From: Streptomyces pseudovenezuelae | GTDB taxonomy: Bacteria > Actinomycetota > Actinomycetes > Streptomycetales > Streptomycetaceae | Reading direction: 5' to 3' | Assembly: GCF_001513955.1 (NCBI RefSeq) | Contig: NZ_KQ948144.1 | Coordinates: 378,853-442,852, forward strand | Length of the DNA stretch: 64,000 bases | Part shown: positions 35,220-46,468 of the stretch, in pieces | Position numbering within the stretch: the stretch's first letter is position 1 | Layout of the letters: every line of letters begins with the position of its first letter | Made by a program: the position numbers and the translations under genes | Notes under the pieces: model-generated | The model's database searches: none | What the model was told of the DNA's origin: nothing | Seen by the model: the letters and a program-made list of their open reading frames with translations, nothing else

Positions 35220-36995
35220 TCAGCCGCGGCGGATCGTGATCGTCGTCCAGGCGCCGACGTGCACCCGGTCGCCGTCCTGGAGAGGCACCGGCACGAACGG
35301 CGTGATGGGCTCCTCGGCGCCGTTGACCGTGGTGCCGTTCGTCGAGTTCTGGTCGACGACCGCCCAGGAGCCGTCCGGCTGCTGGACCAGCACCGCGTGC
35401 TGGTGCGAGACGCCCGGGTCCTCCGGCGGCACCGACAGGTCGACGTCGGGGGTGTCGCCGGTGGAGTGCCGGCGGCGGCCGATGGTGACCTGGTTGCCGG
35501 TGAGCGCGCGCTGCTGCTCGGGGGAGTACGCGGGCAGGTTCAGGCCCGCGGCCTCGGGGCCGGAGCGCTGCATCATCGCCATGAAATAGTCGCGGTCCGG
35601 GCCGATGGTCGCCGTCCAGGTCGCCGGCTGCTGCGGGAAGGACGGGCCGGGGGGCGCGGGCGGGGCCTGGGTGGAGCCGGGCTGCGGGTAGCCGTAACCG
35701 CCGGGGCCGGGGTTGTTCCCGGGACCACCGGGACCACCGGGGGCGGTGGAGGACGGCGGGGAGATGACCCAGTCGTCGGCGCCACCGCCGCCGAAGGGCC
35801 CGCCACCCGGCTGGGGCCGGTTGGTCTCCTGCGGGAAGGCGGGCGGGGCCGACGCGCCCTGCGCCTGGAAGCCCTGCGGGGCACCGCTCGTGGCTCCGGG
35901 GCCGGGGGGCGGCGGGACCGGGTGGGAGGGGTCCGCACCGAAGTTCGGCGGACCGCCGGGAGCACCGGGGCCGCCGGGGCCGCCGGGGCGGGACGGGTCA
36001 CCGGGGAAGCCCTGCGGGCCCCCTGAGCCGCCGGGGCCGGGCTGGGTGGGGGGTCCGCCGAAGCCCTGGGGGCCACCGGGGCCGCCGGGACCGGAAGGGG
36101 CTTGTGGCGAGCCCGGCTGGGGGTAGCCGTAACCGCCGGGGCCGCCGGGGCCGCCGGGGCCACCCGGGCCGGACTGGCCGGGGTAACCGGAGGGGCCGGG
36201 GCCGCCGGGTGCACCGGGGCCGCCGGGATAACCGGAGGGGTTGGGTGCGCCAGGACGCCCGGGGTCACCCGGGAAGCCCTGCTGGCCACCGGGACCACCC
36301 GGGCCGGAAGGACCGGGACCGCCGGGGTAACCGGAGGGGCCGGGGCCGCCAGGTGCTCCGGGGCCGCCCGGGAAACCGGAGGGACCAGGACCGCCGGGAC
36401 CACCGGGGCCGCCGGGACGGGACGGGTCACCGGGGAAGCCCTGCGAACCGCCGGGACCGCCAGGACCGCCGGGGCCACCCTGCCCACCCGGACCACCGCC
36501 GGGACCACCCGGACCCGAGCGGCCCGACGGCTCCGAGCCGAAGGGGATCGGTTCCGCGGGGCGGTTCACCTGTGACGGGCGCGAGCCCTGGTATTCGTAC
36601 GAGTCACCGCCGCCGCCGAAGGACGGACCGGGCCCGGCCTGCTGCTGGAAGTGCGAGGGCGGACCGCCGGAGCCGGCCGGCGGGCGCGGGGCGGCCGGGG
36701 TGTACGAGGTCGCCGTGTTCGTCAGGAAGTTCCACCGGCACTCCTCGCAGAAGGGCGCACCGCCCTCACGGGGCGTACGGCACTGCGGGCAGAGCTCCGG
36801 CTCGGGGTCCGGTACGGAGGACAGATGGGGACGTCCACCGGGCTGGCCCCCGGGACCACCGGGCGGCGGGAAGCCGTAGCCGCCACCCGGACCGGGCGGC
36901 GGAGGGGGCGGAGGTACGGCACCGGCCATGCGGTGACCGCAGACCTCGCACCAGTCGTCGGAACCCGACTGGTGTCCGTTCGGGCAGGTCGGCAT
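35220..36995 (-). CDS. zinc-ribbon / collagen-like / FHA-domain protein
   Basis: The 591-residue protein has two N-terminal zinc ribbons (CPNGHQSGSDDWCEVCG and CPQCRTPREGGAPFCEECRW), about 350 residues of Gly/Pro-rich GPGGPGG-type sequence, and a C-terminal FHA domain. The FHA domain has VTIGRRRHS, GVSHQHAVLV and NSTNGTTVNG, the phosphothreonine-binding residues. FHA domains read phosphothreonine marks. As last gene of the kinase-phosphatase run it is the likely reader or effector. It lacks the ETTS phosphorylation motif of GarA/OdhI, so it is not a simple GarA equivalent. Confidence 0.85.
   Translation of the reverse strand: MPTCPNGHQSGSDDWCEVCGHRMAGAVPPPPPPPGPGGGYGFPPPGGPGGQPGGRPHLSSVPDPEPELCPQCRTPREGGAPFCEECRWNFLTNTATSYTPAAPRPPAGSGGPPSHFQQQAGPGPSFGGGGDSYEYQGSRPSQVNRPAEPIPFGSEPSGRSGPGGPGGGPGGQGGPGGPGGPGGSQGFPGDPSRPGGPGGPGGPGPSGFPGGPGAPGGPGPSGYPGGPGPSGPGGPGGQQGFPGDPGRPGAPNPSGYPGGPGAPGGPGPSGYPGQSGPGGPGGPGGPGGYGYPQPGSPQAPSGPGGPGGPQGFGGPPTQPGPGGSGGPQGFPGDPSRPGGPGGPGAPGGPPNFGADPSHPVPPPPGPGATSGAPQGFQAQGASAPPAFPQETNRPQPGGGPFGGGGADDWVISPPSSTAPGGPGGPGNNPGPGGYGYPQPGSTQAPPAPPGPSFPQQPATWTATIGPDRDYFMAMMQRSGPEAAGLNLPAYSPEQQRALTGNQVTIGRRRHSTGDTPDVDLSVPPEDPGVSHQHAVLVQQPDGSWAVVDQNSTNGTTVNGAEEPITPFVPVPLQDGDRVHVGAWTTITIRRG
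35900..36530 (-). repeat. Gly/Pro-rich minisatellite inside the FHA gene
   Basis: The DNA consists of imperfect repeats of units encoding GPGGPGG, GPSGYPGGPGAPG and QGFPGDPSRPGGPGG. The longer unit occurs several times in slightly changed form. The array is in frame throughout and so length changes would keep the FHA domain intact. Confidence 0.85.
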
Positions 36996-37033
36996 GTCGG
37001 CGCTTCCCCCTCTCGGATCAGGGAACTTCTACG

Positions 37034-38380
37034 TCACTTCTTTACACGAACAGTCTTTGTCGACCGGGTCTCGAGAGTCATCTCGTCGGCCTCCTCGACC
37101 TTCGCCTTCAGTCGCACAGTACCTGTCGTGGCGTCGACCACGTCGACCACCTTCGAAAGCAGTTTCGCAGTATCGGCGTTCCCCGAGTTGTTCGCGAGCT
37201 GAACGGCCCGGCCCAGTTTGGCCGTTGCTCCATCGATATCGCCCGCTTTGCGAAGATCGAGCCCTTGTTGGATGGCCTGTGCCAGTTCGGCCTGGCCGGT
37301 GTAGTGGGCGACTTGGGGGTTGATCGACGTCGAGGCGACCATGTCGTCGGTCCACACGGCCCGGACGAGACCCTGGGCGCCCAGGTTCTGCGGGGTGCCG
37401 TCGGGCTGCGGGACGACCAGGGAGACCCGGGCGGCGAGCATCTCCTGGCCGATGTTCGCGGCCGGGACCTCGACGCAGACGTGGTAGTCACGGGACTCGT
37501 CTCCCCAGGAGCCGGTGGGGTAGTCGCCGGCCCGCGGACCGGCCTCGGTGCGTCGGTCGGTGAGCTCCTCGACGGTGGGCGCGACCTGTTTGACGAACTT
37601 GATCGTGGTGCCGACCGGGGTCCACACCCTGAGGGCGACGTCCGCGACCTCCTTGCCCATGGCCGCCTCCATCATCTGCGTGAAGTCGGCGGCGAGGGCG
37701 GCCGGGTCGGCGACGATGTCGGCCGTGCCGAGCAGCGCGGAGGCGATCCCTGTGACTTCTTTCACTTCCCAGTCGGTGCCCACGCCCCGGGCGTCGCAGG
37801 TGAAACGCCCCGCGCAGGAGTCGAGGGCGGCCTTGAGGTCCTCCGGTGACTCGTGTTCGTTGCGGCCGTCGGTGAGCAGGATGCCGTGGCGGATGGCGAC
37901 GTCCGCCGAGGACAGCAGGCGGTCGGCCAGGCGCAGCCAGGTCCCGATGGCCGTACCGCCGCCCGCGCTGAGCTTGCGCAGGGCCTGTTTGGCCTGGTCA
38001 CGGGTGGTGGCGTCGGCGACCGCGAGGCCGCCGCCGCCCGGATACACCTCCTTGGCCACATGGGTGCCGCCGATCACCGCGAAGTGCACACCGTCGCGCA
38101 GGGTGTCGATCGCGGCGGCCGTGGCGTCGCGGGCGTTGCGCATCTTGGTCGGCGGGTAGTCCATGGAGCCCGAGCAGTCGACCATGAGCGCGACCGCGGC
38201 CGAGGGGCCCTGCCCGGCCGACCACAGGTGCGGGGCGGCGACCGCGCTTCCGATCGTGCCGCCGCCGGTCGAGGTCACCGTGACGATCGCGTTGACCTCG
38301 CGGCCGCCCTCGGGCAGGTACTCGTTCTGGTAGACGTCCATCGCGAACTGCGGCACGTTCGACTTCGAGAAATTGGCCAT
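37034..38380 (-). CDS. von Willebrand factor A domain protein
   Basis: This 448-residue cytoplasmic protein has a vWA domain with a complete MIDAS start, MVDCSGSMD (68-72 DCSGS), GGGTAIGTWLRLAD (the second metal Thr) and ILLTDGRNEHESPED (the third motif). A beta-rich region follows, and a helical C-terminal region has AQAIQQGLDLRKAGDIDGAT, a TPR-like hairpin. MIDAS proteins bind partners through a divalent metal. In this cluster it may act as a scaffold for the kinase or FHA protein. The ATG at 38380 is followed by MANFSKSNVPQFAMDVYQNE. Confidence 0.85.
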   Translation of the reverse strand: MANFSKSNVPQFAMDVYQNEYLPEGGREVNAIVTVTSTGGGTIGSAVAAPHLWSAGQGPSAAVALMVDCSGSMDYPPTKMRNARDATAAAIDTLRDGVHFAVIGGTHVAKEVYPGGGGLAVADATTRDQAKQALRKLSAGGGTAIGTWLRLADRLLSSADVAIRHGILLTDGRNEHESPEDLKAALDSCAGRFTCDARGVGTDWEVKEVTGIASALLGTADIVADPAALAADFTQMMEAAMGKEVADVALRVWTPVGTTIKFVKQVAPTVEELTDRRTEAGPRAGDYPTGSWGDESRDYHVCVEVPAANIGQEMLAARVSLVVPQPDGTPQNLGAQGLVRAVWTDDMVASTSINPQVAHYTGQAELAQAIQQGLDLRKAGDIDGATAKLGRAVQLANNSGNADTAKLLSKVVDVVDATTGTVRLKAKVEEADEMTLETRSTKTVRVKK

Positions 38381-38477
38381 GCCTACTCAAATCCCCCTCG
38401 CGAACCCCACGTTCATGGGGCGATGACTGATCGCGGACCGGTCCCCTCCGGTCCGCCGGGCCTCCCCGTGTACGGCC

Positions 38478-39797
38478 TCAGGCCGATCCTGCCCCCTGCG
38501 CAGGGATCGGGAACGGCACGACGGCCACTGTTACGTTGTCGTGGCCCCCGCCGTCCAGGGCGTGACCGACCAGCACCCGGGCGGTGTGCAGCGGGCGCGC
38601 GGCGGCGTCGGCCGGCACGGCCTGAGCCATCTCCTCGGCCGCCTCCGCGTAGTTCCACAGGCCGTCGGTGCACACCACCACCACACCAGGCCGGTCCGGC
38701 TTGAAGGAAGCGGTGTGCGGGTCGAGTTCGTAGGCGTCCGCGCCGAGCCAGCCGGTGATCGCGTGGGCGCGCTCGTCGGCGTACGCCTCGGCCTCGTTCA
38801 TCAGGCCCGCGGCGACCATCTGCGCGGCCCAGGAGTCGTCCTCGGTGAGCCGGGCCGGGGGTGCGCCGCGGTCCGTGGGCACCCAGTAGACGCGGCTGTC
38901 GCCGACCCAGCCGACGACCAGCAGGCTCGGGGTGACGACCGATCCGACGATCGTGCACGCGGGGGCGTTCTGGTGCGGCTGGTGCTCGCGGGCCGTGGCG
39001 GGCTCCCCGGCGAGCGAGTTGACCGCGCGGGAGGCGGCGACGATCGCCTCGTGCAGGGCCTGCTGGGGGTGGGTGCCCTGCGGCAGCGTGGCCAGCAGCG
39101 CGTCGGCCGCGGCCCGGGAGGCGGCCAGGGAGGCGTCGTCGGGGCGGGTCGCGGAGGACACACCGTCGCAGACGACCGCGAAGGTGGCCGGTGAGCCGTC
39201 GGGCAGCACGCTGGTGCCCAGCGTGAAGGCGTCCTCGTTGCGGTGGTGGCGCAGGCCGCGGTCGCTGACGGCGGCGATCGGGCCGATCTCCTGCTCCATG
39301 TGGTCGCGCTCACGCGGCTGGGCGTGCCCGCAGTTCTCGCAGTAGCCGTCGTCGTCGACCCGGCCGGCACGACAGGCCACGCACACCTTGGTCCCTTCGG
39401 CAGGGGTGGCCGGTCCCGCGGCCACGCGCGGGTCGGGCGCCTGAAGGACGTACTCGTCGGGCTCCGGCGGCCGGTCGAAGCGCACGCCGGAGGCGGGGGA
39501 GACCGGCGACCCGAGCACCGGCCCCGACTGGGGCGGCACCGGCGGCAGTTCGTGCTCGCCCGACGCGGAGGCCCGCAGGTCGGTCGGCAGATGGAGCTCC
39601 GCCGGGGGGTGCGGGGCCGTCGGCCAGGGACCGCCCGGGGGCGCGCCGTTCACGGCGACGGTCGGACTGTCGTCCGGCCGGGCCGGGACGGCGGACAGGT
39701 CGTATCCGCACGCACCGCAGAAACGGTCGCCCGACTCGACGGGTTCCTCGCAGCTCGGACACCTCGAAAGGGCGGTCTGCTGGGGCATCTGCGACAT
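38478..39797 (-). CDS. PP2C-family Ser/Thr phosphatase with two zinc ribbons
   Basis: The 439-residue protein has an N-terminal zinc ribbon (CPSCEEPVESGDRFCGACG), a proline-rich linker, a second ribbon (CVACRAGRVDDDGYCENCG at about 139-157) and a PP2C domain. The PP2C metal motifs are SDRGLRHHRNEDAF (178-191), VVCDGVSS (with the DG pair), VGDSRVYW, VCTDGLWNY and GGGHDNVTVAVV. It should dephosphorylate substrates of the adjacent kinase. The ATG at 39797 lies just after the kinase stop, with a TTG directly in front, so the two are translationally coupled. Confidence 0.9.
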   Translation of the reverse strand: MSQMPQQTALSRCPSCEEPVESGDRFCGACGYDLSAVPARPDDSPTVAVNGAPPGGPWPTAPHPPAELHLPTDLRASASGEHELPPVPPQSGPVLGSPVSPASGVRFDRPPEPDEYVLQAPDPRVAAGPATPAEGTKVCVACRAGRVDDDGYCENCGHAQPRERDHMEQEIGPIAAVSDRGLRHHRNEDAFTLGTSVLPDGSPATFAVVCDGVSSATRPDDASLAASRAAADALLATLPQGTHPQQALHEAIVAASRAVNSLAGEPATAREHQPHQNAPACTIVGSVVTPSLLVVGWVGDSRVYWVPTDRGAPPARLTEDDSWAAQMVAAGLMNEAEAYADERAHAITGWLGADAYELDPHTASFKPDRPGVVVVCTDGLWNYAEAAEEMAQAVPADAAARPLHTARVLVGHALDGGGHDNVTVAVVPFPIPAQGAGSA

Positions 39798-39800
39798 CAA

Positions 39801-42326
39801 CTACACCCACGTCCGGGGGCGGTAACGGTTGGCTCGTTCCACCAGGTCGATCCTCTCCTCGCCGCCCTGCGCGAGCCGGGCCAGCGCGCGGTACGAACGC
39901 TCCAGGCCGAAGCGCAGTCCGCGCTCGTCCAGTCCGCTGCCGAGCAGTGCCCGTCCCCCGGGGGCGGGGGCGACGGAGTCCTGGCCACCGGAGAGTATCC
40001 AGTCCAGGGCCGCGCCCAGCACCTCGGCCGACAACTGCTCGCGACGCGCCGGATCCAGTCCGTACGCGTCCAGCGCCTCGACCTGCCCGGCGGCGGCGGT
40101 CAGGTCGTCCAGGAAGGGTACGTCGCCCGCGGTCGCGGTGCGTCCACGCAGCCGCGCGCGGACGGCCGCCACCCGGGCGCCGGTGTAGTGGATGGAGGAC
40201 TCCGGCACCGACTCCAGGGTCCGCACCGCGCTACGGCGGTCCCCGGTCGCCAGCTGCACGCGCGCGAGGCCGAACGCGGAGCTCACATAGCTCGGGTCGG
40301 TCGACCACACCAGCCCGTAGTACTCGGCGGCGTTGTCGAGCTGGCCCAGCACCTCCGCGCACAGGCCGAGGGCGAGCTTGGGGGCGGGTTCGCCGGGGAA
40401 GGCGTCGTAGATCGCGTCGAAGGCGAGCGCGGCGGCCTCGTGGTCGCCGGTCACCAGCGCGGCCACGCCCCGGTACCAGACCACCCGCCAGTCGTCGGGC
40501 CGCTCCTCCTCAAGGCGCCGCAGCGCCTCGTCCGCGGTGTGCGCGTCGCCGTTCTCCAGCCAGGCGCGGATCTGCCGGAGCCGGGACTCCGCCGACGGCG
40601 CCGGCGCGGCCGCGAGGGCGCCGAGCAGCTCGGCGGGCGCGGTGGCCATGAGCCCGGCGAGGAAACCGGCGTTGGGGTCGGAGGGGTCCACGTGGGGGAC
40701 GGGGAGCGCGAGGGCGGCGACGGGAGCGTTCGCCGGCTTGACGAGGGACCGGGGGGTGCCGAGGGCTCCGGCGCCCGGCCGCTCGGCGGCACCCGGGGCG
40801 CCCGCCTGGCCGGCAGACTTCCGGGCGGGCAGCGCCCGTCCCCCCAGCCGTGACACCTCCCCGTCCAGCTTCGGGAACAACTCCGCGTCCGTGACCCGCA
40901 CTTCGGGGCCGAAGAGGGTCGACAGGGCGGGTCTGGCGCGGCCCGTCTGCAGGGAGACGACCTCGCGCAGGACGCCCGTCAGCTGTTCCGACATCTCCTG
41001 CGCGGAGGCGAAACGGCGGGCCGGGTCGGGGTCGGTCGCGCGGACCAGCAGCCGGTAGAAGGACTCGTACCGGCGGAAGACCTCGATGTTGTCCGGGTCG
41101 GGCAGCGAGTCGACGAAGACGTTGGTGTAGCCCTGGAAGTCGAAGGTCAGCACGGCCAGGGTGCGGCCGACCGTGTACAGGTCGGAGGCGACCGAGGGGC
41201 CCACGTCCGCGACCTCCGGCGCCTGGTAGCCCACCGTGCCGTAGATGGCCGACTCCTCGTCGTCCATCCTGCGCACCGCGCCCATGTCGATCAGCTTGAG
41301 CTGGTCCTCGGTCTGGATGGCGTTGTCGACCTTGAAGTCGCAGTACAGGAGGTTGCGGCTGTGCAGATGGCCGAGCGCCTCCAAGGCCTCGATGCCGTAG
41401 GCGCACGCCTGCTCCACCGGCAGTGGGTCCCGCTTGCCGTCGGCCGAACGGCGGCCGTTGGCGATCTCCTTGAGCGACTTGCCGCCGACGTACTCCATGA
41501 CGATGTAGCCGTCGAGCGAACCGGTGCGCTGGTCCAGGTGCTCCACGAAGTTGTAGATCCGCACGATGTTGGCGTGCTCGATCTCCGCGAGGAAGCGCCG
41601 CTCGGAGATCGCGGCGGCCATCGCGTCCTGGTCGCCGGTGTCCAGGAGACCCTTGAGGACCACCCAGCGGTCGGACACCGCGCGGTCCACGGCGAGATAG
41701 ACCCAGCCGAGACCGCCGTGCGCGAGGCAGCCCGCGACCTCGTACTGGCCGTGCACGATGTCGCCGGACTTCAGCTTCGGCACGAACGAGTACGGGTGGC
41801 CGCACTTGGTGCAGAAACCCTCGGTGCGCCCGGACTTCTCCCCGCGCGAACGCCCCACCGGGGCACCGCAGTCGGAGCGCGAGCAGAACCGCTTGCGCTC
41901 GGGCACCTCGGGGTTCTCCAGGACCATCTCGCGCGGGTCGGGCCGCGGCACCCCGGGCACCTCGACGAGCCCCGCGCCGATCCGGCCGCGCCCGGTCGAA
42001 CCGGCGGAGGAGCCGGAGCCGCGCACCGACACCGAACGGCCCGTGGACTTGCCCGAGACCGAACGCGAGAGCCGGCCCGACACCGAGCGCCGCGACTTCG
42101 ACGAGTGCGAGGACGTCCGTGAGGAACCGCGGCCGGTGGCGCGCGCACTCGCGCTGCCCTGCGAGTCCCCGCCGCCGTCGGTGCCGGCGGGCACCGACCC
42201 CGAGCGGCCGGTCCCCGCGACGACCGGCGCCAGGCCGCAGGTGTCGCAGTACAGCTCGCCGCCGCCCATGTCCTCGTACCTGCCCTCGCAGCCGGGCCGC
42301 TGACAGGGCTGCTGTTCCTGACTCAT
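39801..42326 (-). CDS. pknG: PknG-like Ser/Thr protein kinase (rubredoxin, kinase, TPR)
   Basis: The 841 residues contain, in order: a zinc ribbon (8-30), a Ser/Arg-rich disordered stretch (50-105), a rubredoxin-like double CxxC knuckle (CSRSDCG at 148, FCTKCG at 171), a kinase domain (about 195-460) and a TPR-like C-terminal half. The kinase has AHGGLGWVYLA, VVLKG with Lys225, the catalytic loop YCDFKVDN (328-335) and the metal motif DMG (347-349). YCDFK instead of HRD and DMG instead of DFG are PknG hallmarks. PknG controls glutamate metabolism through GarA-type FHA proteins. The start is ATG 42326, overlapping the previous stop. Confidence 0.92.
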   Translation of the reverse strand: MSQEQQPCQRPGCEGRYEDMGGGELYCDTCGLAPVVAGTGRSGSVPAGTDGGGDSQGSASARATGRGSSRTSSHSSKSRRSVSGRLSRSVSGKSTGRSVSVRGSGSSAGSTGRGRIGAGLVEVPGVPRPDPREMVLENPEVPERKRFCSRSDCGAPVGRSRGEKSGRTEGFCTKCGHPYSFVPKLKSGDIVHGQYEVAGCLAHGGLGWVYLAVDRAVSDRWVVLKGLLDTGDQDAMAAAISERRFLAEIEHANIVRIYNFVEHLDQRTGSLDGYIVMEYVGGKSLKEIANGRRSADGKRDPLPVEQACAYGIEALEALGHLHSRNLLYCDFKVDNAIQTEDQLKLIDMGAVRRMDDEESAIYGTVGYQAPEVADVGPSVASDLYTVGRTLAVLTFDFQGYTNVFVDSLPDPDNIEVFRRYESFYRLLVRATDPDPARRFASAQEMSEQLTGVLREVVSLQTGRARPALSTLFGPEVRVTDAELFPKLDGEVSRLGGRALPARKSAGQAGAPGAAERPGAGALGTPRSLVKPANAPVAALALPVPHVDPSDPNAGFLAGLMATAPAELLGALAAAPAPSAESRLRQIRAWLENGDAHTADEALRRLEEERPDDWRVVWYRGVAALVTGDHEAAALAFDAIYDAFPGEPAPKLALGLCAEVLGQLDNAAEYYGLVWSTDPSYVSSAFGLARVQLATGDRRSAVRTLESVPESSIHYTGARVAAVRARLRGRTATAGDVPFLDDLTAAAGQVEALDAYGLDPARREQLSAEVLGAALDWILSGGQDSVAPAPGGRALLGSGLDERGLRFGLERSYRALARLAQGGEERIDLVERANRYRPRTWV

Positions 42327-43654
42327 GACGACGACTCCCCCCTACGGTCCTCGGGCCCGCTCTGCGGCACCCGCGGGGCGGTCAGCAGTTCGGCGACCGC
42401 GTGCTGATAGCGCAACACGGCCTGGTCGGCGACCCGCAGGTCGCAGGGCGCGCTCCACAGCATCCGCCGGGCCGCGTCGTACCGCTCGATCAGGAACGGG
42501 TCCTCGGCCAGACCGTGCCGGGCGACCTTCGCCTTGTACGCGTCGAGCCGGCCGCGCAGCTCCGCGCGGACGGCGAGCGGCGCGGTGACCGCGGTCAGCG
42601 ACTCGCGGGCGCGCAGCAGTTCGTCCTCCGCCTTCTGCTCCAGGGACTCCAGGAGCGGGGACAGGCGGTGCCACTGGGCGTGTCTGCGGTACTCGGCGGC
42701 GGTCGCCAGCTGCTCCTGGAGAGCGGTCGGCGGTCCGCTGACGACCGGCACCTCCGTGGCCGCGATCTTCGCGAGGACCTCGCCGCGCGCGATGCGGGCC
42801 TCGGCGAGCGTGCGGTCCGCGCGGGAGAGCACGTCCCGCAGCTTGACCAGCCGGGCCTCGGCGTCCTGGCGGACGGTGAGCACCGCGTCGATCTCCCGGC
42901 GCACGTCCTCCAGGGCGCGCGCCTCACGGTCGTACGCCGTGGTGTCCGGCCGTCCGCCGCCGGGGGCCGAACTGCCCGGCGTGGGCTGCCAGAAGGCGAG
43001 CGGGTCGGAGATCACCTGCTCGCGCAGCGAGGTGAGGGTGCGGGTGATGCGCTCCAGGTCGTCGCCCGACGGGTGCTCCCCGGGGCGTACGCCGACGGAG
43101 TGCGCGAGCCGGCGGGTGCGCTGGAGTTCGGCGGACAGCAGGTCTATCCGGGCGGGCAGCGCCGACCACACCGCGTCGGCGGCGACGACCATGTCCAGGC
43201 TCGTCGCGTACAGCTCGTTCATCCGCTCCACGAGCGTCACCAGCGAGAACCGCTCGCTGAGTTTGCCCGCATTGCCGTGCAGGGTGGGCGCGTTGGCCGT
43301 GGCGGTCGCCGAGCCCGCGACCGTGACCGACTCGCCGCGCAGCAGCTCGGTCAGCTCCACCAGGTCCTCGCGGCTGGACCAGCGGCGGCGGGAGCGGATC
43401 TCGCGGGCCGAGCGCAGCGCGTCCGCGTACGCGTCGAAGTACGCCCACAGCAGGGTGATCGACGCGTCGGCGGACTCCCAGCGCTCCTTGGTCACCCCGG
43501 TGAGCTCGGCGCCTTCCAGCAGCCTGCGGCCCGCGTGGTCCTGGAGGGCGAGGAGGGAGGTCTCGATCGCCTCGTGCTCCGCGCCGAGCCGCGCCAGCGC
43601 ACGGTCCACCTCGTCCCGGTCCATCACCGGCCCGGGGGGTCCCGTGACGCCCAT
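42323..43654 (-). CDS. helical/coiled-coil protein of unknown function in the PknG cluster
   Basis: The 443 residues are almost wholly alpha-helical, with long heptad-like stretches (MDRDEVDRALARLGAEHEAI, REIDAVLTVRQDAEARLVKL, LESLEQKAEDELLRARESL) and no signal peptide or membrane helix. I know no named family for it. It overlaps the kinase gene by four bases (ATGA) and follows the binding-protein gene after 69 bases, so it is part of the operon. Its place between sensor and kinase genes suggests an adaptor carrying the signal inside the cell; that is inference. Confidence 0.75.
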   Translation of the reverse strand: MGVTGPPGPVMDRDEVDRALARLGAEHEAIETSLLALQDHAGRRLLEGAELTGVTKERWESADASITLLWAYFDAYADALRSAREIRSRRRWSSREDLVELTELLRGESVTVAGSATATANAPTLHGNAGKLSERFSLVTLVERMNELYATSLDMVVAADAVWSALPARIDLLSAELQRTRRLAHSVGVRPGEHPSGDDLERITRTLTSLREQVISDPLAFWQPTPGSSAPGGGRPDTTAYDREARALEDVRREIDAVLTVRQDAEARLVKLRDVLSRADRTLAEARIARGEVLAKIAATEVPVVSGPPTALQEQLATAAEYRRHAQWHRLSPLLESLEQKAEDELLRARESLTAVTAPLAVRAELRGRLDAYKAKVARHGLAEDPFLIERYDAARRMLWSAPCDLRVADQAVLRYQHAVAELLTAPRVPQSGPEDRRGESSS

Positions 43655-43723
43655 CGATCACCTCTCGCTGCTGAAGGGTTGCTGTGGGTGGTTGTCGTCC
43701 GTTGCGGTCGTCCGTGGTGGTCG

Positions 43724-44788
43724 TCAGCTCGTGCGCAGGTACTGCGGTGGCGGCGGCTCCGACTTCGCCGAGTCCTTGGCCAGTGTGGCGGACAGCCACC
43801 TGTCGTACGACGCCTGCCAGCCGTCGGTGGTGTCCTTGCGGTAGTCCACCAGGATCTGGTTGACCCGGCGTACCAGATCGTCGGCGTCGCTCTTCATCGC
43901 CACGCCGTAGTACTCGGTGGTGAAGGGGGTCCCTTTCAGTTCGACCGTGGGGTCCTGCGCGGCCTGGCTGGCGGCGAGCGCGCCGTCGGTGACCACGGCG
44001 TCGACCTCGCCGAGCTGCAGCCTCACCAGGCAGTCGAGTTGGTTGGGAACCGTGGTCGTGATGTCGGCGGAGGCGACGAGCCTGCCCGCCTTCTTGTCGT
44101 CGTCCAGCTTGCTGAAGGCGGTCGAACCCTCCGCCGTGCAGATCTTCTTGTGCGCCAGGGTGTCGCCGTAGCCCTCGATAGCGGAGGACTTGGGGGCGAG
44201 GACCTGCTGGCCGGTCTTGAAGTACGGCGCGGAGAACGCCACTTGGCCCACGCGCGTGCAGTTGATCGTCATCGTGCGGACGACCATGTCGACCCGGCCC
44301 TTCTGTATGGCCGGGATGCGCTGGTTGGTGGGGATCGCCTTGAACTGGACGGCGTTCGGGTCACCGAGGATGTCCTGGGCGATCCTGTGCACCAGGTCGA
44401 TGTCGAAGCCCTCCAGGTCGGCCTTCGGCCCGCCGTTGGGGTTGCGGTAGCCCCAGCGGTAGCTGTTCTGGTCGACGCCGACGATCAGCTTGCGCTTCTC
44501 GCCCTCGCGGGCCTTGATCTTCTCGATGGTCGGGCCGTCCGCGCTCGACGGGGACAGCGTCTGCTTCTCCGGGGCCGACTTGATCGCCGGGTCCAGACAG
44601 GGATCGTCGTCGGCCGCCTGCCGCGCGTACACCACGCCGGGCCCGCCGGTCTCCGTGCCGCCGTCGCCGTGCGACTGGGTCAGCGGCAGCAGCAGGACGA
44701 AGGCGAGCGCCAGGGCGCAGACGACCGCCATCGCCCCGACCCCGCCCCAGCCCCTGAGACCGGTCCGCACCCGCCCGCGCATCCGCAT
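43724..44788 (-). CDS. family-3 amino-acid-binding protein, GlnH-like, membrane-anchored
   Basis: The 354-residue protein starts at ATG 44788 (GTG 44806 possible), has one hydrophobic helix (about 17-35) and then a family-3 solute-binding domain. The domain has KLIVGVDQNSYRWGYRN, DLEGFDIDLVHRIAQDIL, GRVDMVVRTMTINCTRVGQV and FSAPYFKTGQQVL. It lacks a lipobox, so it is either cleaved and released or held by its helix. No permease or transport ATPase lies beside it. In M. tuberculosis GlnH binds aspartate or glutamate and signals through GlnX to PknG; the same layout here argues for sensing, not uptake. Confidence 0.87.
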   Translation of the reverse strand: MRMRGRVRTGLRGWGGVGAMAVVCALALAFVLLLPLTQSHGDGGTETGGPGVVYARQAADDDPCLDPAIKSAPEKQTLSPSSADGPTIEKIKAREGEKRKLIVGVDQNSYRWGYRNPNGGPKADLEGFDIDLVHRIAQDILGDPNAVQFKAIPTNQRIPAIQKGRVDMVVRTMTINCTRVGQVAFSAPYFKTGQQVLAPKSSAIEGYGDTLAHKKICTAEGSTAFSKLDDDKKAGRLVASADITTTVPNQLDCLVRLQLGEVDAVVTDGALAASQAAQDPTVELKGTPFTTEYYGVAMKSDADDLVRRVNQILVDYRKDTTDGWQASYDRWLSATLAKDSAKSEPPPPQYLRTS

Positions 44789-44802
44789 CGTCACGCCCCC
44801 TC

Positions 44803-46272
44803 TCACCGGTACTCCGACAGCCTGCGCCCGATGCCCAGCACCGCGCCGGCCGCGCCCAGGACGGCCAGCACGGCGGCGCCCACCGGCAGTCCGGTCATCG
44901 CGCCCAGACCGTCACCGGCCGAACGCCTGAACTCGGCCTCCTCGTGGGTCAGGGCCTTGGCGAGGTTGTCGTCGACGCTGTCGAAGCACTCGCCCGTCGC
45001 GCCCTTGGGGCCTATGACCCGCTTCAGCGCCTCTTCGTAGTTGCCGTTGTCGTCCTGCTCCCGGGCCGCGGTGTGGCGCTGCTTCCACACCGCCATGTTG
45101 CCCTCGGCCGCGGTCACCGGCTGCTTGCCGCTGCTGTCGTCGGCGAGCTTCGACGCCTGGGCCAGCCCCTTGCCGAGGGTGTCCATGTCCTTGTCGAAGT
45201 CGTAGTCGTAGGCGTCGTAGGTGACGTCCTCGCCCTGGGCGTTCTTCTTGACGACCGTCTCCGCGCCGCGCGCCACCAGCGTGAGGTTCTCGTTGCCGCG
45301 CGCCTTCAGGGAGGCGATCCGGGCGTCGTGCAGCACGTTGAGAGAGAGGACACCGTGGTCGTAGGAGTCGTTGAGGCCCGCGCGCGCGACGGTGTGGCCG
45401 ACGACCAGCCACAGCAGCACCACGGTGGCCGTCGCGGTGGCCGCGACCAGGCCGTGGTTGAGGACCCGGTTGGTGCGCCGGTAGTTGCGGTGCTGGGCCC
45501 AGGCGAGACCGGCGAGCGCCAGCACGCCGAGGCCGATCGCGGCCCACGGGTAGGGCGTGGCGTCGCCGTAGTCGGCGCGCAGCCGCTGGTTCTCGCTCGT
45601 GTAGAGGTTCTGCGCCTTCGGGAGCATCTCCTCCTGCATCTTCTCGTTGGCGTAGCGCAGATAGGCGCCGCCGACCGGGAAGCCCTGGCGGTTGTACGTA
45701 CGGGCCCGCTCCACCAGGCCCTTGTACTCCGGCAGCAGGGTGTTGAGCTCGGCCACGGTCCTCGCTGCCGGGGAGTCCGGGTCGGAGTTCGAGGCGGCCC
45801 TGACCAGGCCGGCCGCGGCCAGGTCGATGTCCTTCTCGTACAGCTCGCGGGAGGCGGCCGTCTCCTGGCCGCCGGCGAGGAAGCCGCTGGAGGCGGCGGT
45901 GTTGGCGTCGGCCAGATAGCGGTAGATGTCGGCGGCGGCGCTGCTGAGCGGCTGGCTCTTGTGCAGCACGTCGTCCGCGGCGGCGGCCCGGTCGTTGGTC
46001 TGCCAGGCGGTCACCGCGCCGAAGAGGACGACGAGCAGGGCGAGCGCGGCACCGATGATGCGCAGCCGGCCCGGCTCGGTGGTGGCGGCCGCGCGCACCT
46101 GGTCGAAACCCTCCGCGAAGGCGGTACGGCGCGCGGGTGCCCGCTCCGGCGCGACGGCGGGCGGGGGTGCCTGCGGGGCCGGGGCCACAGGGCCCGGCTG
46201 CGGCGGCACGGCCGGCATCGTGGGCACCCCGGAACCCGGTGCCGCCGCGCTGCTCTTCGGCGGGTGTGTCAC
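44803..46272 (-). CDS. GlnX-like four-helix membrane sensor
   Basis: The 489-residue protein starts at GTG 46272 (after GGGAGG). After a proline-rich cytoplasmic N-terminus it has membrane helices at about 71-90, 243-260, 275-293 and 455-475. The two large external loops are helical, as in four-helix-bundle sensors. I see no kinase, HAMP or catalytic motif. Topology and gene order (membrane protein, family-3 binding protein, then PknG) match the mycobacterial glnX-glnH-pknG locus, where GlnX passes the ligand signal to the kinase. First gene of the seven-gene run. Confidence 0.78.
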   Translation of the reverse strand: MTHPPKSSAAAPGSGVPTMPAVPPQPGPVAPAPQAPPPAVAPERAPARRTAFAEGFDQVRAAATTEPGRLRIIGAALALLVVLFGAVTAWQTNDRAAAADDVLHKSQPLSSAAADIYRYLADANTAASSGFLAGGQETAASRELYEKDIDLAAAGLVRAASNSDPDSPAARTVAELNTLLPEYKGLVERARTYNRQGFPVGGAYLRYANEKMQEEMLPKAQNLYTSENQRLRADYGDATPYPWAAIGLGVLALAGLAWAQHRNYRRTNRVLNHGLVAATATATVVLLWLVVGHTVARAGLNDSYDHGVLSLNVLHDARIASLKARGNENLTLVARGAETVVKKNAQGEDVTYDAYDYDFDKDMDTLGKGLAQASKLADDSSGKQPVTAAEGNMAVWKQRHTAAREQDDNGNYEEALKRVIGPKGATGECFDSVDDNLAKALTHEEAEFRRSAGDGLGAMTGLPVGAAVLAVLGAAGAVLGIGRRLSEYR

Positions 46273-46468
46273 TGTTTGACCTCCCCCATGGTCATCCCTC
46301 GCCGCAAGTATCGCTGCCGGGACCGACATCCGCACCGGGCTTCACTCGATCTTGATCGGATCGCAGCGGATCGCCCCCGGCGGCTCCGCGTTCTGCACCA
46401 CCCCTTGCCCATGAATACGCCCCCGGAATCGGTTCGGTTCCCCCGGGGGAGCGCGTAGGGTCGCCGTC

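What the first reader, a model, noticed from the sequence alone, without database searches (positions are those of the whole stretch)
35220..46272. Seven-gene GlnX-GlnH-PknG-type amino-acid sensing system with its own phosphatase, vWA protein and FHA reader
All seven genes lie on one strand with short gaps or overlaps: four-helix membrane protein, family-3 binding protein without permease or ATPase, coiled-coil protein, PknG-like kinase (YCDFK/DMG motifs seen), PP2C phosphatase, MIDAS vWA protein, FHA protein. In mycobacteria GlnX, GlnH and PknG form a known aspartate/glutamate-sensing path acting on an FHA protein. Here the core is the same but it is joined to a dedicated phosphatase, a phosphothreonine reader, a vWA protein and an unnamed helical protein. 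That suggests a full sense-write-erase-read circuit in Streptomyces, possibly with outputs other than 2-oxoglutarate dehydrogenase.
Basis: partly seen in the sequence, partly recalled or inferred. Interest (0 to 1): 0.78.

Follow-up and report, generated by a model that had tools for sequence, protein, structure and literature searches.

The report
Seven-gene amino-acid sensing kinase operon
Next to a known amino-acid sensing kinase, this Streptomyces-type genome carries a conserved set of partner genes predicted to remove, read and scaffold the kinase's marks, and the same seven-gene set recurs across many actinobacterial families, so the well-studied three-gene version of mycobacteria is likely a cut-down form and a possible dedicated link to glutamate breakdown becomes testable.

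Summary
Seven same-strand genes (35220-46335) encode GlnX, GlnH, an unnamed helical protein (CC), PknG, a PP2C phosphatase, a vWA protein and an FHA protein, with gaps of -4 to 97 bp. The GlnX-GlnH-PknG core is known, and its conservation in Streptomyces is in print. The other four genes are not described in the papers I could search, yet travel with PknG: 10 of 10 other same-genus loci have the seven in order, and 61 of 80 named loci, from Kineosporia and Nocardioides to an Acidimicrobiaceae MAG, have all seven. The mycobacteria-like family (9 genomes) has only the core and forms one clade nested in the PknG tree, so it looks reduced. Active-site residues are kept in nearly every row. The FHA protein is not GarA, whose ortholog lies elsewhere in this genome. 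In one genome an FHA-ATPase-TPR-NAD-glutamate dehydrogenase fusion holds the FHA position; 13 listed protein clusters combine FHA and this dehydrogenase, and their FHA part matches the operon FHA far better than GarA. I read a self-contained sense-write-erase-read module, likely acting on glutamate catabolism. Ligand, targets and complex formation are untested. New variant of a known kind.

The parts
44803..46335 (-). GlnX: membrane signal transducer with four hydrophobic segments and two extracytoplasmic stretches (start codon uncertain: 46335, 46329 or 46272)
   Evidence: NF058618 505 bits over residues 85-510; translation; start candidates
43724..44806 (-). GlnH: family-3 solute-binding protein behind an N-terminal hydrophobic segment, no lipobox found
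   Evidence: SBP_bac_3 1e-24; best solved relative M. tuberculosis GlnH 6h1u, E 6e-41; lipobox pattern not found
42323..43654 (-). CC: conserved all-helical protein of unknown family, inferred scaffold/adaptor; first gene of the cytosolic block
   Evidence: no Pfam/NCBIfam family over cut-off; AlphaFold2 mean pLDDT 91.2, pTM 0.74, mostly long helices; co-occurs with PknG
39801..42326 (-). PknG-type Ser/Thr kinase: N-terminal four-Cys zinc-ribbon-like motif, rubredoxin, kinase, TPR
   Evidence: PknG_TPR 4e-87, PknG_rubred 4e-30, Pkinase 8e-26; PDB 2pzi E 2e-171; catalytic K225, D330, N335, D347 kept in 114 of 114 rows
38478..39800 (-). PP2C-type phosphatase with N-terminal zinc ribbons (start probably ATG 39797)
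   Evidence: PP2C_2 1.5e-13, Stp1-type 8e-28, Zn ribbon 3e-07; motif residues kept in 97-98 of 98 rows
37034..38380 (-). vWA protein with intact MIDAS motif and VWA_3_C domain
   Evidence: VWA_3_C 2e-22, VWA_3 2e-09; D68, S70, S72, T143, D171 kept in 98 of 98 rows
35220..36995 (-). FHA protein: N-terminal Cys motifs (zinc-ribbon-like), Gly/Pro-rich linker, C-terminal FHA domain
   Evidence: FHA 2e-16 at 503-581; Arg507, Ser530, Asn553 kept in 66 of 66 rows

Best explanation
This is a seven-gene cluster, likely one operon, for an extended GlnX-GlnH-PknG system in which the binding protein GlnH and the membrane protein GlnX are predicted to tell the kinase PknG that amino acids (likely acidic ones) are present outside, and a co-encoded PP2C phosphatase, FHA protein, vWA protein and helical protein likely erase, read and scaffold the phosphorylation that follows. 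Shown here: the genes, their domains, intact active-site residues, co-occurrence and mostly fixed order across many families, and a separate GarA gene in the same genome. Inferred: ligand-bound GlnH docks on GlnX and activates PknG through its TPR domain, as proposed for mycobacteria and C. glutamicum. PknG phosphorylates itself, GarA and probably the operon FHA protein or its partners. The PP2C, not a general phosphatase alone, resets the signal. Zinc ribbons, the helical protein and the vWA hold the cytosolic parts together. The FHA protein carries the signal to a glutamate-catabolism enzyme, most likely NAD-glutamate dehydrogenase, beside the GarA-oxoglutarate dehydrogenase branch.
For: Domains and GlnX/PknG family assignment. 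Same seven genes in the same order in 10 of 10 other same-genus loci and all seven in 61 of 80 named loci. Among 148 genomes of the class, 39 have PknG_TPR over its cut-off; CC is found at E<1e-10 in 27, all 27 among the 39; a vWA of this type over 400 bits in 25, all among those 27. The set survives rearrangement: CC-PknG-PP2C-vWA-FHA-GlnX-GlnH in family f17 and in three Actinomadura loci, and two convergent blocks in a genome of another class. Active sites nearly invariant. Four extra N-terminal Cys of PknG are present in 100, 100, 99 and 95 of the 105 rows that are not three-gene type (mostly extended type, a few paralogs), while the first is a gap in 9 of 9 three-gene rows. FHA-glutamate dehydrogenase fusion at the FHA position of a PknG-PP2C-vWA-like cluster and 13 listed protein clusters with both domains; the window FHA matches their FHA parts at E 1e-19 to 1e-27, GarA only at 1e-5 to 1e-10. 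GlnH keeps the equivalents of Arg147, Thr162, Arg169 and Asp250. PknG-GlnX-GlnH function elsewhere: PMC6069109, PMC9769921, PMC8546545 (passages).
Against: No expression, binding or phosphorylation data for this cluster. The fusion was seen in its PknG neighbourhood in one genome only; a sample of 396 genomes of the phylum held no further fusion (15 genomes matched, open frames up to 972 aa), so it is rare, and the same proteins also carry ATPase/TPR parts, so the dehydrogenase link may be lineage-specific. That genome's vWA-like gene matches only the C-terminal part of the model. NAD-glutamate dehydrogenase is far from the cluster here (C1:26013). GarA-like matches occur in 148 of 148 genomes, PknG or not, and the strict ETTS-type pattern was found in only 4 of the 16 GarA rows printed, so GarA may serve other kinases. 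In the pocket Trp232 is Gln and Ser164 is Thr, and the Thr162 position is N or A in 41 of 101 rows outside the three-gene group, so the ligand may not be Asp/Glu. No structural match explains CC.
Confidence: 0.52

Rival explanations
1. A general kinase-PP2C-vWA stress module of the kind seen with TelA/TerY-like genes, to which the GlnX-GlnH sensor is attached; the output would be stress or envelope remodelling rather than glutamate metabolism.
For: Three gene clusters recur upstream of GlnX, mostly on the same strand: one in 46 of 80 named loci (the member typed is TelA), one in 38 (member typed: AAA+ ATPase, best models SpoVK/CbbX/EccA, all under their cut-offs) and one in 32 (small, no family). 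Kinase with zinc ribbon plus PP2C plus stand-alone vWA is described for actinobacterial GTPase systems (PMC7159879, passages). The cytosolic block occurs without GlnX-GlnH in one Acidimicrobiales MAG (L172).
Against: The three genes are not in the window's cluster, and this genome's TelA lies on another contig; only 5 of 11 same-genus genomes have TelA at all. The sensor genes stay with the block in most loci examined. The kinase is PknG proper (rubredoxin plus PknG_TPR), whose tested role elsewhere is glutamate metabolism.
Confidence: 0.2
2. Only the known GlnH-GlnX-PknG-GarA-oxoglutarate dehydrogenase pathway works here; the four extra genes are linked for expression but have their own unrelated jobs.
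For: GarA ortholog with an ETTST motif present in the genome; the three-gene form suffices in mycobacteria and C. glutamicum (PMC6069109, PMC9769921, passages).
Against: At the cut-offs used (E<1e-10; 400 bits) CC and the vWA were found in 0 of the 109 genomes without PknG (each search scored only the best candidates per genome), and the set stays together through permutation and block inversion.
Confidence: 0.15
3. The same circuit, but GlnH senses a ligand other than Asp/Glu in the extended systems (for example another polar amino acid).
For: The Trp232 position is W in 9 of 9 three-gene rows but H 40, Q 24, Y 10 and others among 101 other rows; the Thr162 position is T in 55, N in 27 and A in 14 of these 101.
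Against: The equivalent of Arg147, which contacts the ligand side-chain carboxylate (PMC6069109, passages), is kept in 100 of 101; Thr162 is kept in the window.
Confidence: 0.3
4. GlnH is an orphan transporter binding protein that merely sits next to a kinase operon.
For: Its NCBIfam matches are mostly ABC amino-acid binding proteins, all under their cut-offs.
Against: Its best solved relative is the PknG-linked M. tuberculosis GlnH; no amino-acid ABC permease or ATPase was found among the neighbours typed; glnH overlaps glnX by 4 bp and keeps company with it across families.
Confidence: 0.04

Closest known systems
GlnH-GlnX-PknG-GarA/OdhI pathway of Mycobacterium and Corynebacterium (PMC6069109, PMC9769921, PMC8546545; passages seen)
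   Same: Related sensor, transducer and kinase in the same order; PknG with rubredoxin and TPR; a GarA ortholog in the genome.
   Different: Four extra co-encoded genes (CC, PP2C, vWA, FHA); extra N-terminal zinc-ribbon-like Cys motif on PknG; changed GlnH pocket residues; no GlnH lipobox found in this strain.
Actinobacterial zinc-ribbon kinase - PP2C - stand-alone vWA gene sets in GAP1-N2 GTPase systems (PMC7159879, passages)
   Same: Kinase, PP2C and single vWA protein encoded together; zinc ribbons.
   Different: Here the kinase is PknG, with GlnX-GlnH sensing and an FHA protein; no GTPase component was found in the cluster.
TerY-P triad (vWA TerY, PP2C, kinase) linked to Ter/TelA genes (recalled; searches returned no paper)
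   Same: vWA-PP2C-kinase trio; in many relatives outside Streptomyces a TelA gene is upstream.
   Different: No TerD/TerC genes among the proteins typed in and beside the window's cluster; sensor and PknG TPR/rubredoxin parts are extra.
GarA/OdhI
   Same: FHA protein; zinc ribbon shared with this genome's GarA; PknG-pathway context.
   Different: The operon FHA scores 19.8 bits on the OdhI model against a cut-off of 200, has a long Gly/Pro linker and a C-terminal FHA; the GarA ortholog is at C4:6135.

Membership tests
GlnX-GlnH-PknG signalling system | GlnX family membrane protein encoded with a family-3 binding protein and PknG | tested here: met
   NF058618 505 bits; SBP_bac_3; PknG_TPR/PknG_rubred
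GlnX-GlnH-PknG signalling system | PknG domain order rubredoxin-kinase-TPR with catalytic residues | tested here: met
GlnX-GlnH-PknG signalling system | GlnH pocket residues that bind Asp/Glu (Arg147, Thr162, Ser164, Arg169, Trp232, Asp250 of M. tuberculosis) | tested here: inconclusive
   R147, T162, R169, D250 kept; S164 to T; W232 to Q (alignment, numbering counted by hand; residue list from PMC6069109 passages)
GlnX-GlnH-PknG signalling system | GarA/OdhI substrate in the genome | tested here: met
   189 bits at C4:6135-6470 (under the equivalog cut-off of 200) with ETTST motif
GlnX-GlnH-PknG signalling system | amino-acid-dependent activation of PknG | not testable with these tools
   needs biochemistry
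kinGactiv_GlnX equivalog (NF041460) | score over the equivalog cut-off of 780 bits | tested here: not met
   181 bits; the protein belongs to the wider GlnX subfamily instead
OdhI/GarA (for the operon FHA protein) | score over cut-off and N-terminal ETTS-type phospho-motif next to the FHA | tested here: not met
   19.8 bits against 200; no ETTS motif in the translation
Functional FHA reader | phosphothreonine-contact Arg, Ser, Asn | tested here: met
   window and 66 of 66 rows
PP2C phosphatase | motif Asp/Gly/Asn residues of the metal site | tested here: met
   97-98 of 98 rows
TerY-P triad / Ter stress system | vWA, PP2C and kinase together with TerD/TerC-type genes (definition recalled) | tested here: inconclusive
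   trio present; TelA only in other families' loci; TerD/TerC not searched genome-wide
Anti-phage defence kinase systems (PADLOC) | specific match to a defence model beyond the kinase domain | tested here: not met
   PknG matches 28 models, the 25 shown by the kinase region only; the other six proteins match none at 1e-5

The most novel reading that the evidence does not exclude
The textbook GlnH-GlnX-PknG pathway of mycobacteria and corynebacteria is the stripped remnant of an ancestral, phylum-wide self-contained sense-write-erase-read complex (in some lineages ten genes with TelA and an AAA+ ATPase), whose own FHA reader, not GarA alone, docks on and controls NAD-glutamate dehydrogenase; in some actinobacteria reader and enzyme have become one protein.
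Probability: 0.35. Interest if true: 0.8.

Novelty: new variant of a known kind. Interest (0 to 1): 0.62.

Why it matters
How PknG signals are switched off and read, and what PknG does outside mycobacteria and corynebacteria, are open questions. A fixed partner set (phosphatase, FHA reader, vWA, helical adaptor) gives named, deletable candidates in harmless antibiotic producers. It would also change the evolutionary picture, making the mycobacterial pathway a reduced form. The FHA-glutamate dehydrogenase fusions name one enzyme to test first. Altering GarA raised erythromycin yield in Saccharopolyspora erythraea (PMC12321487, passages), so this switch is of practical interest too.

Tried and rejected
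Rejected: GlnH as part of a transporter (no permease/ATPase of that type among the neighbours typed); the operon FHA as GarA; the cluster as an anti-phage system; Streptomyces-specific invention. The zinc ribbon on GarA as a marker of the extended system failed: it also occurs in genomes without PknG (a pattern-based look at 21 loci, 16 of which printed).

Counts: the 80 named loci were the best 80 of 593 by similarity to an extended-type PknG, so they under-sample mycobacteria and must not be read as frequencies. Of the 19 loci without all seven, 13 have missing genes at a contig end by my reading of locus lengths (L174, one of these, also lacks GlnH inside); L136, L147, L153, L162, L172 and L173 do not. 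The 40 loci were chosen from the stronger GlnX matches; weaker matches were left out. The tree used 32 of the 80 named loci.
Full report
WHAT IS THERE. Seven ORFs on the - strand, 35220-46335, follow each other with gaps of -4, 69, -4, 0, 97 and 38 bp in the order glnX, glnH, CC, pknG, PP2C, vWA, FHA. Profile searches name six of them: GlnX family (NF058618, 505 bits), SBP_bac_3, PknG (rubredoxin, kinase, PknG_TPR), PP2C with zinc ribbons, VWA_3/VWA_3_C, and FHA with N-terminal Cys motifs. The 443-aa CC protein matches no family over its cut-off. The nearest solved relatives are M. tuberculosis GlnH (6h1u, E 6e-41) and PknG (2pzi, E 2e-171). The neighbours look unrelated: a methyltransferase gene on the + strand and a globin gene below, an AAA gene on the + strand and a sugar-uptake type cluster above.

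ARE THE PARTS WORKING PARTS? Using ORFs from the loci fetched, the kinase residues K225, D330, N335 and D347 are kept in 114 of 114 rows, the PP2C motif residues in 97-98 of 98, the vWA MIDAS in 98 of 98, and the FHA Arg/Ser/Asn in 66 of 66 (rows passed score thresholds set in that script, and the FHA rows come from the named loci only). The kinase has an N-terminal four-Cys motif (C8, C13, C27, C30) ahead of the rubredoxin: Cys in 100, 100, 99 and 95 of the 105 rows that are not three-gene type (mostly extended type, a few paralogs). In the 9 three-gene rows the first column is a gap in all 9, and the second and third are Cys in 1 of 9 each (for the fourth the printed list was cut). PP2C and FHA proteins of the named loci also carry Cys-pair ribbons (73 of 73 and 65 of 66 by a loose pattern).

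GENE SET ACROSS GENOMES. In 148 genomes of the class, GlnX is matched in 47 (33 over cut-off) and PknG_TPR over cut-off in 39. CC at E<1e-10 occurs in 27, all within the 39; three more hits at 7e-4 to 4e-7 I regard as noise (all three have stops inside; two are in genomes without PknG, one in a three-gene genome away from PknG). A vWA of this type over 400 bits occurs in 25, all within the 27. These searches score only the best first-look candidates of each genome. The 12 PknG genomes without CC are the nine of family f4 plus G027, G088 and G121 (PknG of the last lies at a contig start). f4 has GlnX-GlnH-PknG only; its PknG is very close to the M. tuberculosis structure (L051 against 2pzi, 1405 bits). 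Same-genus loci: 10 of 10 have all seven in order. Named loci: 61 of 80 have all seven, among them Kineosporiaceae, Cellulomonadaceae, Kribbellaceae, Promicromonosporaceae, Nocardioidaceae, Intrasporangiaceae, Micromonosporaceae, Streptomycetaceae, Thermomonosporaceae and one Acidimicrobiaceae MAG. These 80 were the best of 593 candidates by similarity to an extended-type PknG, so the fraction is not a frequency.

MODULES. The order is permuted to CC-PknG-PP2C-vWA-FHA-GlnX-GlnH in family f17 (L083, L084; L082 with a short vWA) and in three Actinomadura loci (L157, L161, L175). In G321, of another class, GlnX-GlnH and the CC-to-FHA block face each other. One Acidimicrobiales MAG has the block without GlnX or GlnH (L172). 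So there is a two-gene sensor block and a five-gene cytosolic block, and CC belongs to the latter. In many families three more gene clusters precede GlnX, mostly on the same strand: TelA (46 of 80 loci), a small unnamed gene (32) and an AAA+ ATPase nearest to SpoVK/CbbX/EccA models (38) (one member of each was typed). Among Streptomycetaceae loci they were seen only in L105, a record titled Streptomyces whose operon resembles Kribbella's. In the window's genome TelA sits on another contig beside a different vWA protein.

WHICH FORM IS OLDER? In a 77-row PknG tree the nine three-gene rows plus two f4 second copies form one clade (SH-aLRT 100) inside a supported group (97) with Streptomyces and the permuted clusters; the other rows are extended-type, paralogs, or single partial cases (L055, L087, L147, L174) (quick method, no bootstrap, rooted on long-branched Streptomyces paralogs, with the tool's long-branch warning). 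One loss in the mycobacteria-like family is the simplest reading; a root on that branch would reverse it, but the spread to other classes argues against that.

OUTPUT. A GarA ortholog lies at C4:6135-6470 (189 bits, ETTST motif), so the operon FHA (19.8 bits on that model) is another protein. In G027 the order PknG-PP2C-vWA-like is followed by a 2316-aa ORF: FHA, STAND-type ATPase, TPR, NAD-glutamate dehydrogenase (Bac_GDH_CD 2e-229). Its vWA-like gene lacks the MIDAS part. A database search lists 13 protein clusters (one identical to the query) with FHA plus this dehydrogenase, three of them also with a kinase domain (140 hits, 120 listed). Their FHA parts match the window FHA at 38-54% identity (E 1e-19 to 1e-27) and GarA only at 1e-5 to 1e-10. 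Some also share the N-terminal ribbon (P0131: 52% over 23 residues). Used as a query, the G027 FHA segment found only the operon FHA in this genome at E<=1e-8 (9 of 34 first-look candidates scored). Against this, the same search found no further fusion in 396 genomes of the phylum (15 matched, open frames up to 972 aa), so fusions are rare. This fusion logic points to NAD-glutamate dehydrogenase, which this genome encodes at C1:26013. Two Propionibacteriaceae MAGs also have a dehydrogenase gene a few kb from the cluster, on the other strand (L118, L121).

SIGNAL. PMC6069109 (passages) gives the Asp pocket of M. tuberculosis GlnH. Here Arg147, Thr162, Arg169 and Asp250 are kept, Ser164 is Thr, Lys161 is Arg and Trp232 is Gln. 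Across 101 rows outside the three-gene group Arg147 is kept in 100, but Trp232 is H 40, Q 24, Y 10 or others. An amino acid with a negatively charged side chain remains the best guess, not more.

CC. AlphaFold2 on 57 sequences gives a confident all-helical model (pLDDT 91.2, pTM 0.74) without a telling structural match. An adaptor between membrane and kinase is inference from position and shape only.

LITERATURE. The sensor, kinase and effector were already said to be conserved in Streptomyces (PMC6069109, abstract and passages). Searches of the open-access library for PknG with GlnX/GlnH, with Streptomyces/FHA/PP2C/von Willebrand, with GarA, with glutamate dehydrogenase/FHA/fusion, with von Willebrand factor, and with phosphatase/operon listed no paper that, by title and abstract start, describes the PP2C-vWA-FHA-CC partners or the fusions; I saw passages of five papers only, and subscription journals are mostly not in the library.

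VERDICT. Observation confirmed; interpretation partly supported and widened. A new, widespread variant of a known system, with a testable output.

Noticed in passing
L087:2413-9363 (G027:C50): 2316-aa FHA-STAND ATPase-TPR-NAD-glutamate dehydrogenase fusion next to PknG-PP2C-vWA-like genes; relatives include three with an added kinase domain (2565-2567 aa).
   Followed up: partly
L033:9138-13594 (G000:C4, own genome): A second PknG-like kinase (1111 aa, no rubredoxin match) overlapping a GlnX-like 405-aa gene; other streptomycetes have different second systems: PknG-like with a vWA of this type in L092-L094, in L092 beside a trypsin-like gene and with a zinc ribbon on the vWA.
   Followed up: partly
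L100-L156, upstream of GlnX: TelA, a small unnamed gene and an AAA+ ATPase recur upstream of GlnX, suggesting an operon of up to ten genes outside Streptomyces.
   Followed up: partly
L074:1318-1854: The GarA of this genome has an N-terminal zinc ribbon; so do five of the six printed GarA rows from genomes without PknG, while the two f4 rows lack it; the strict ETTS-type pattern appears in only 4 of 16 printed rows.
   Followed up: partly
window 43724-44806: GlnH has a long hydrophobic N-terminal segment and no lipobox found, unlike the lipoprotein-like N-termini of f4, Nocardioidaceae and Micromonosporaceae rows.
   Followed up: partly
L221:7320-10048 (G000:C2): TelA overlapping a 725-aa ORF with a solute-binding (SBP_bac_11) and a vWA domain, near PEP carboxykinase.
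   Followed up: no
L118:20108-22486 and L121:11558-13396: NAD-glutamate dehydrogenase gene a few kb downstream of the FHA gene on the opposite strand in two Propionibacteriaceae MAGs.
   Followed up: partly
L105: A record titled Streptomyces sp. SID13031 whose ten-gene-type operon and PknG resemble Kribbella rather than Streptomyces; possibly a mislabelled genome.
   Followed up: no
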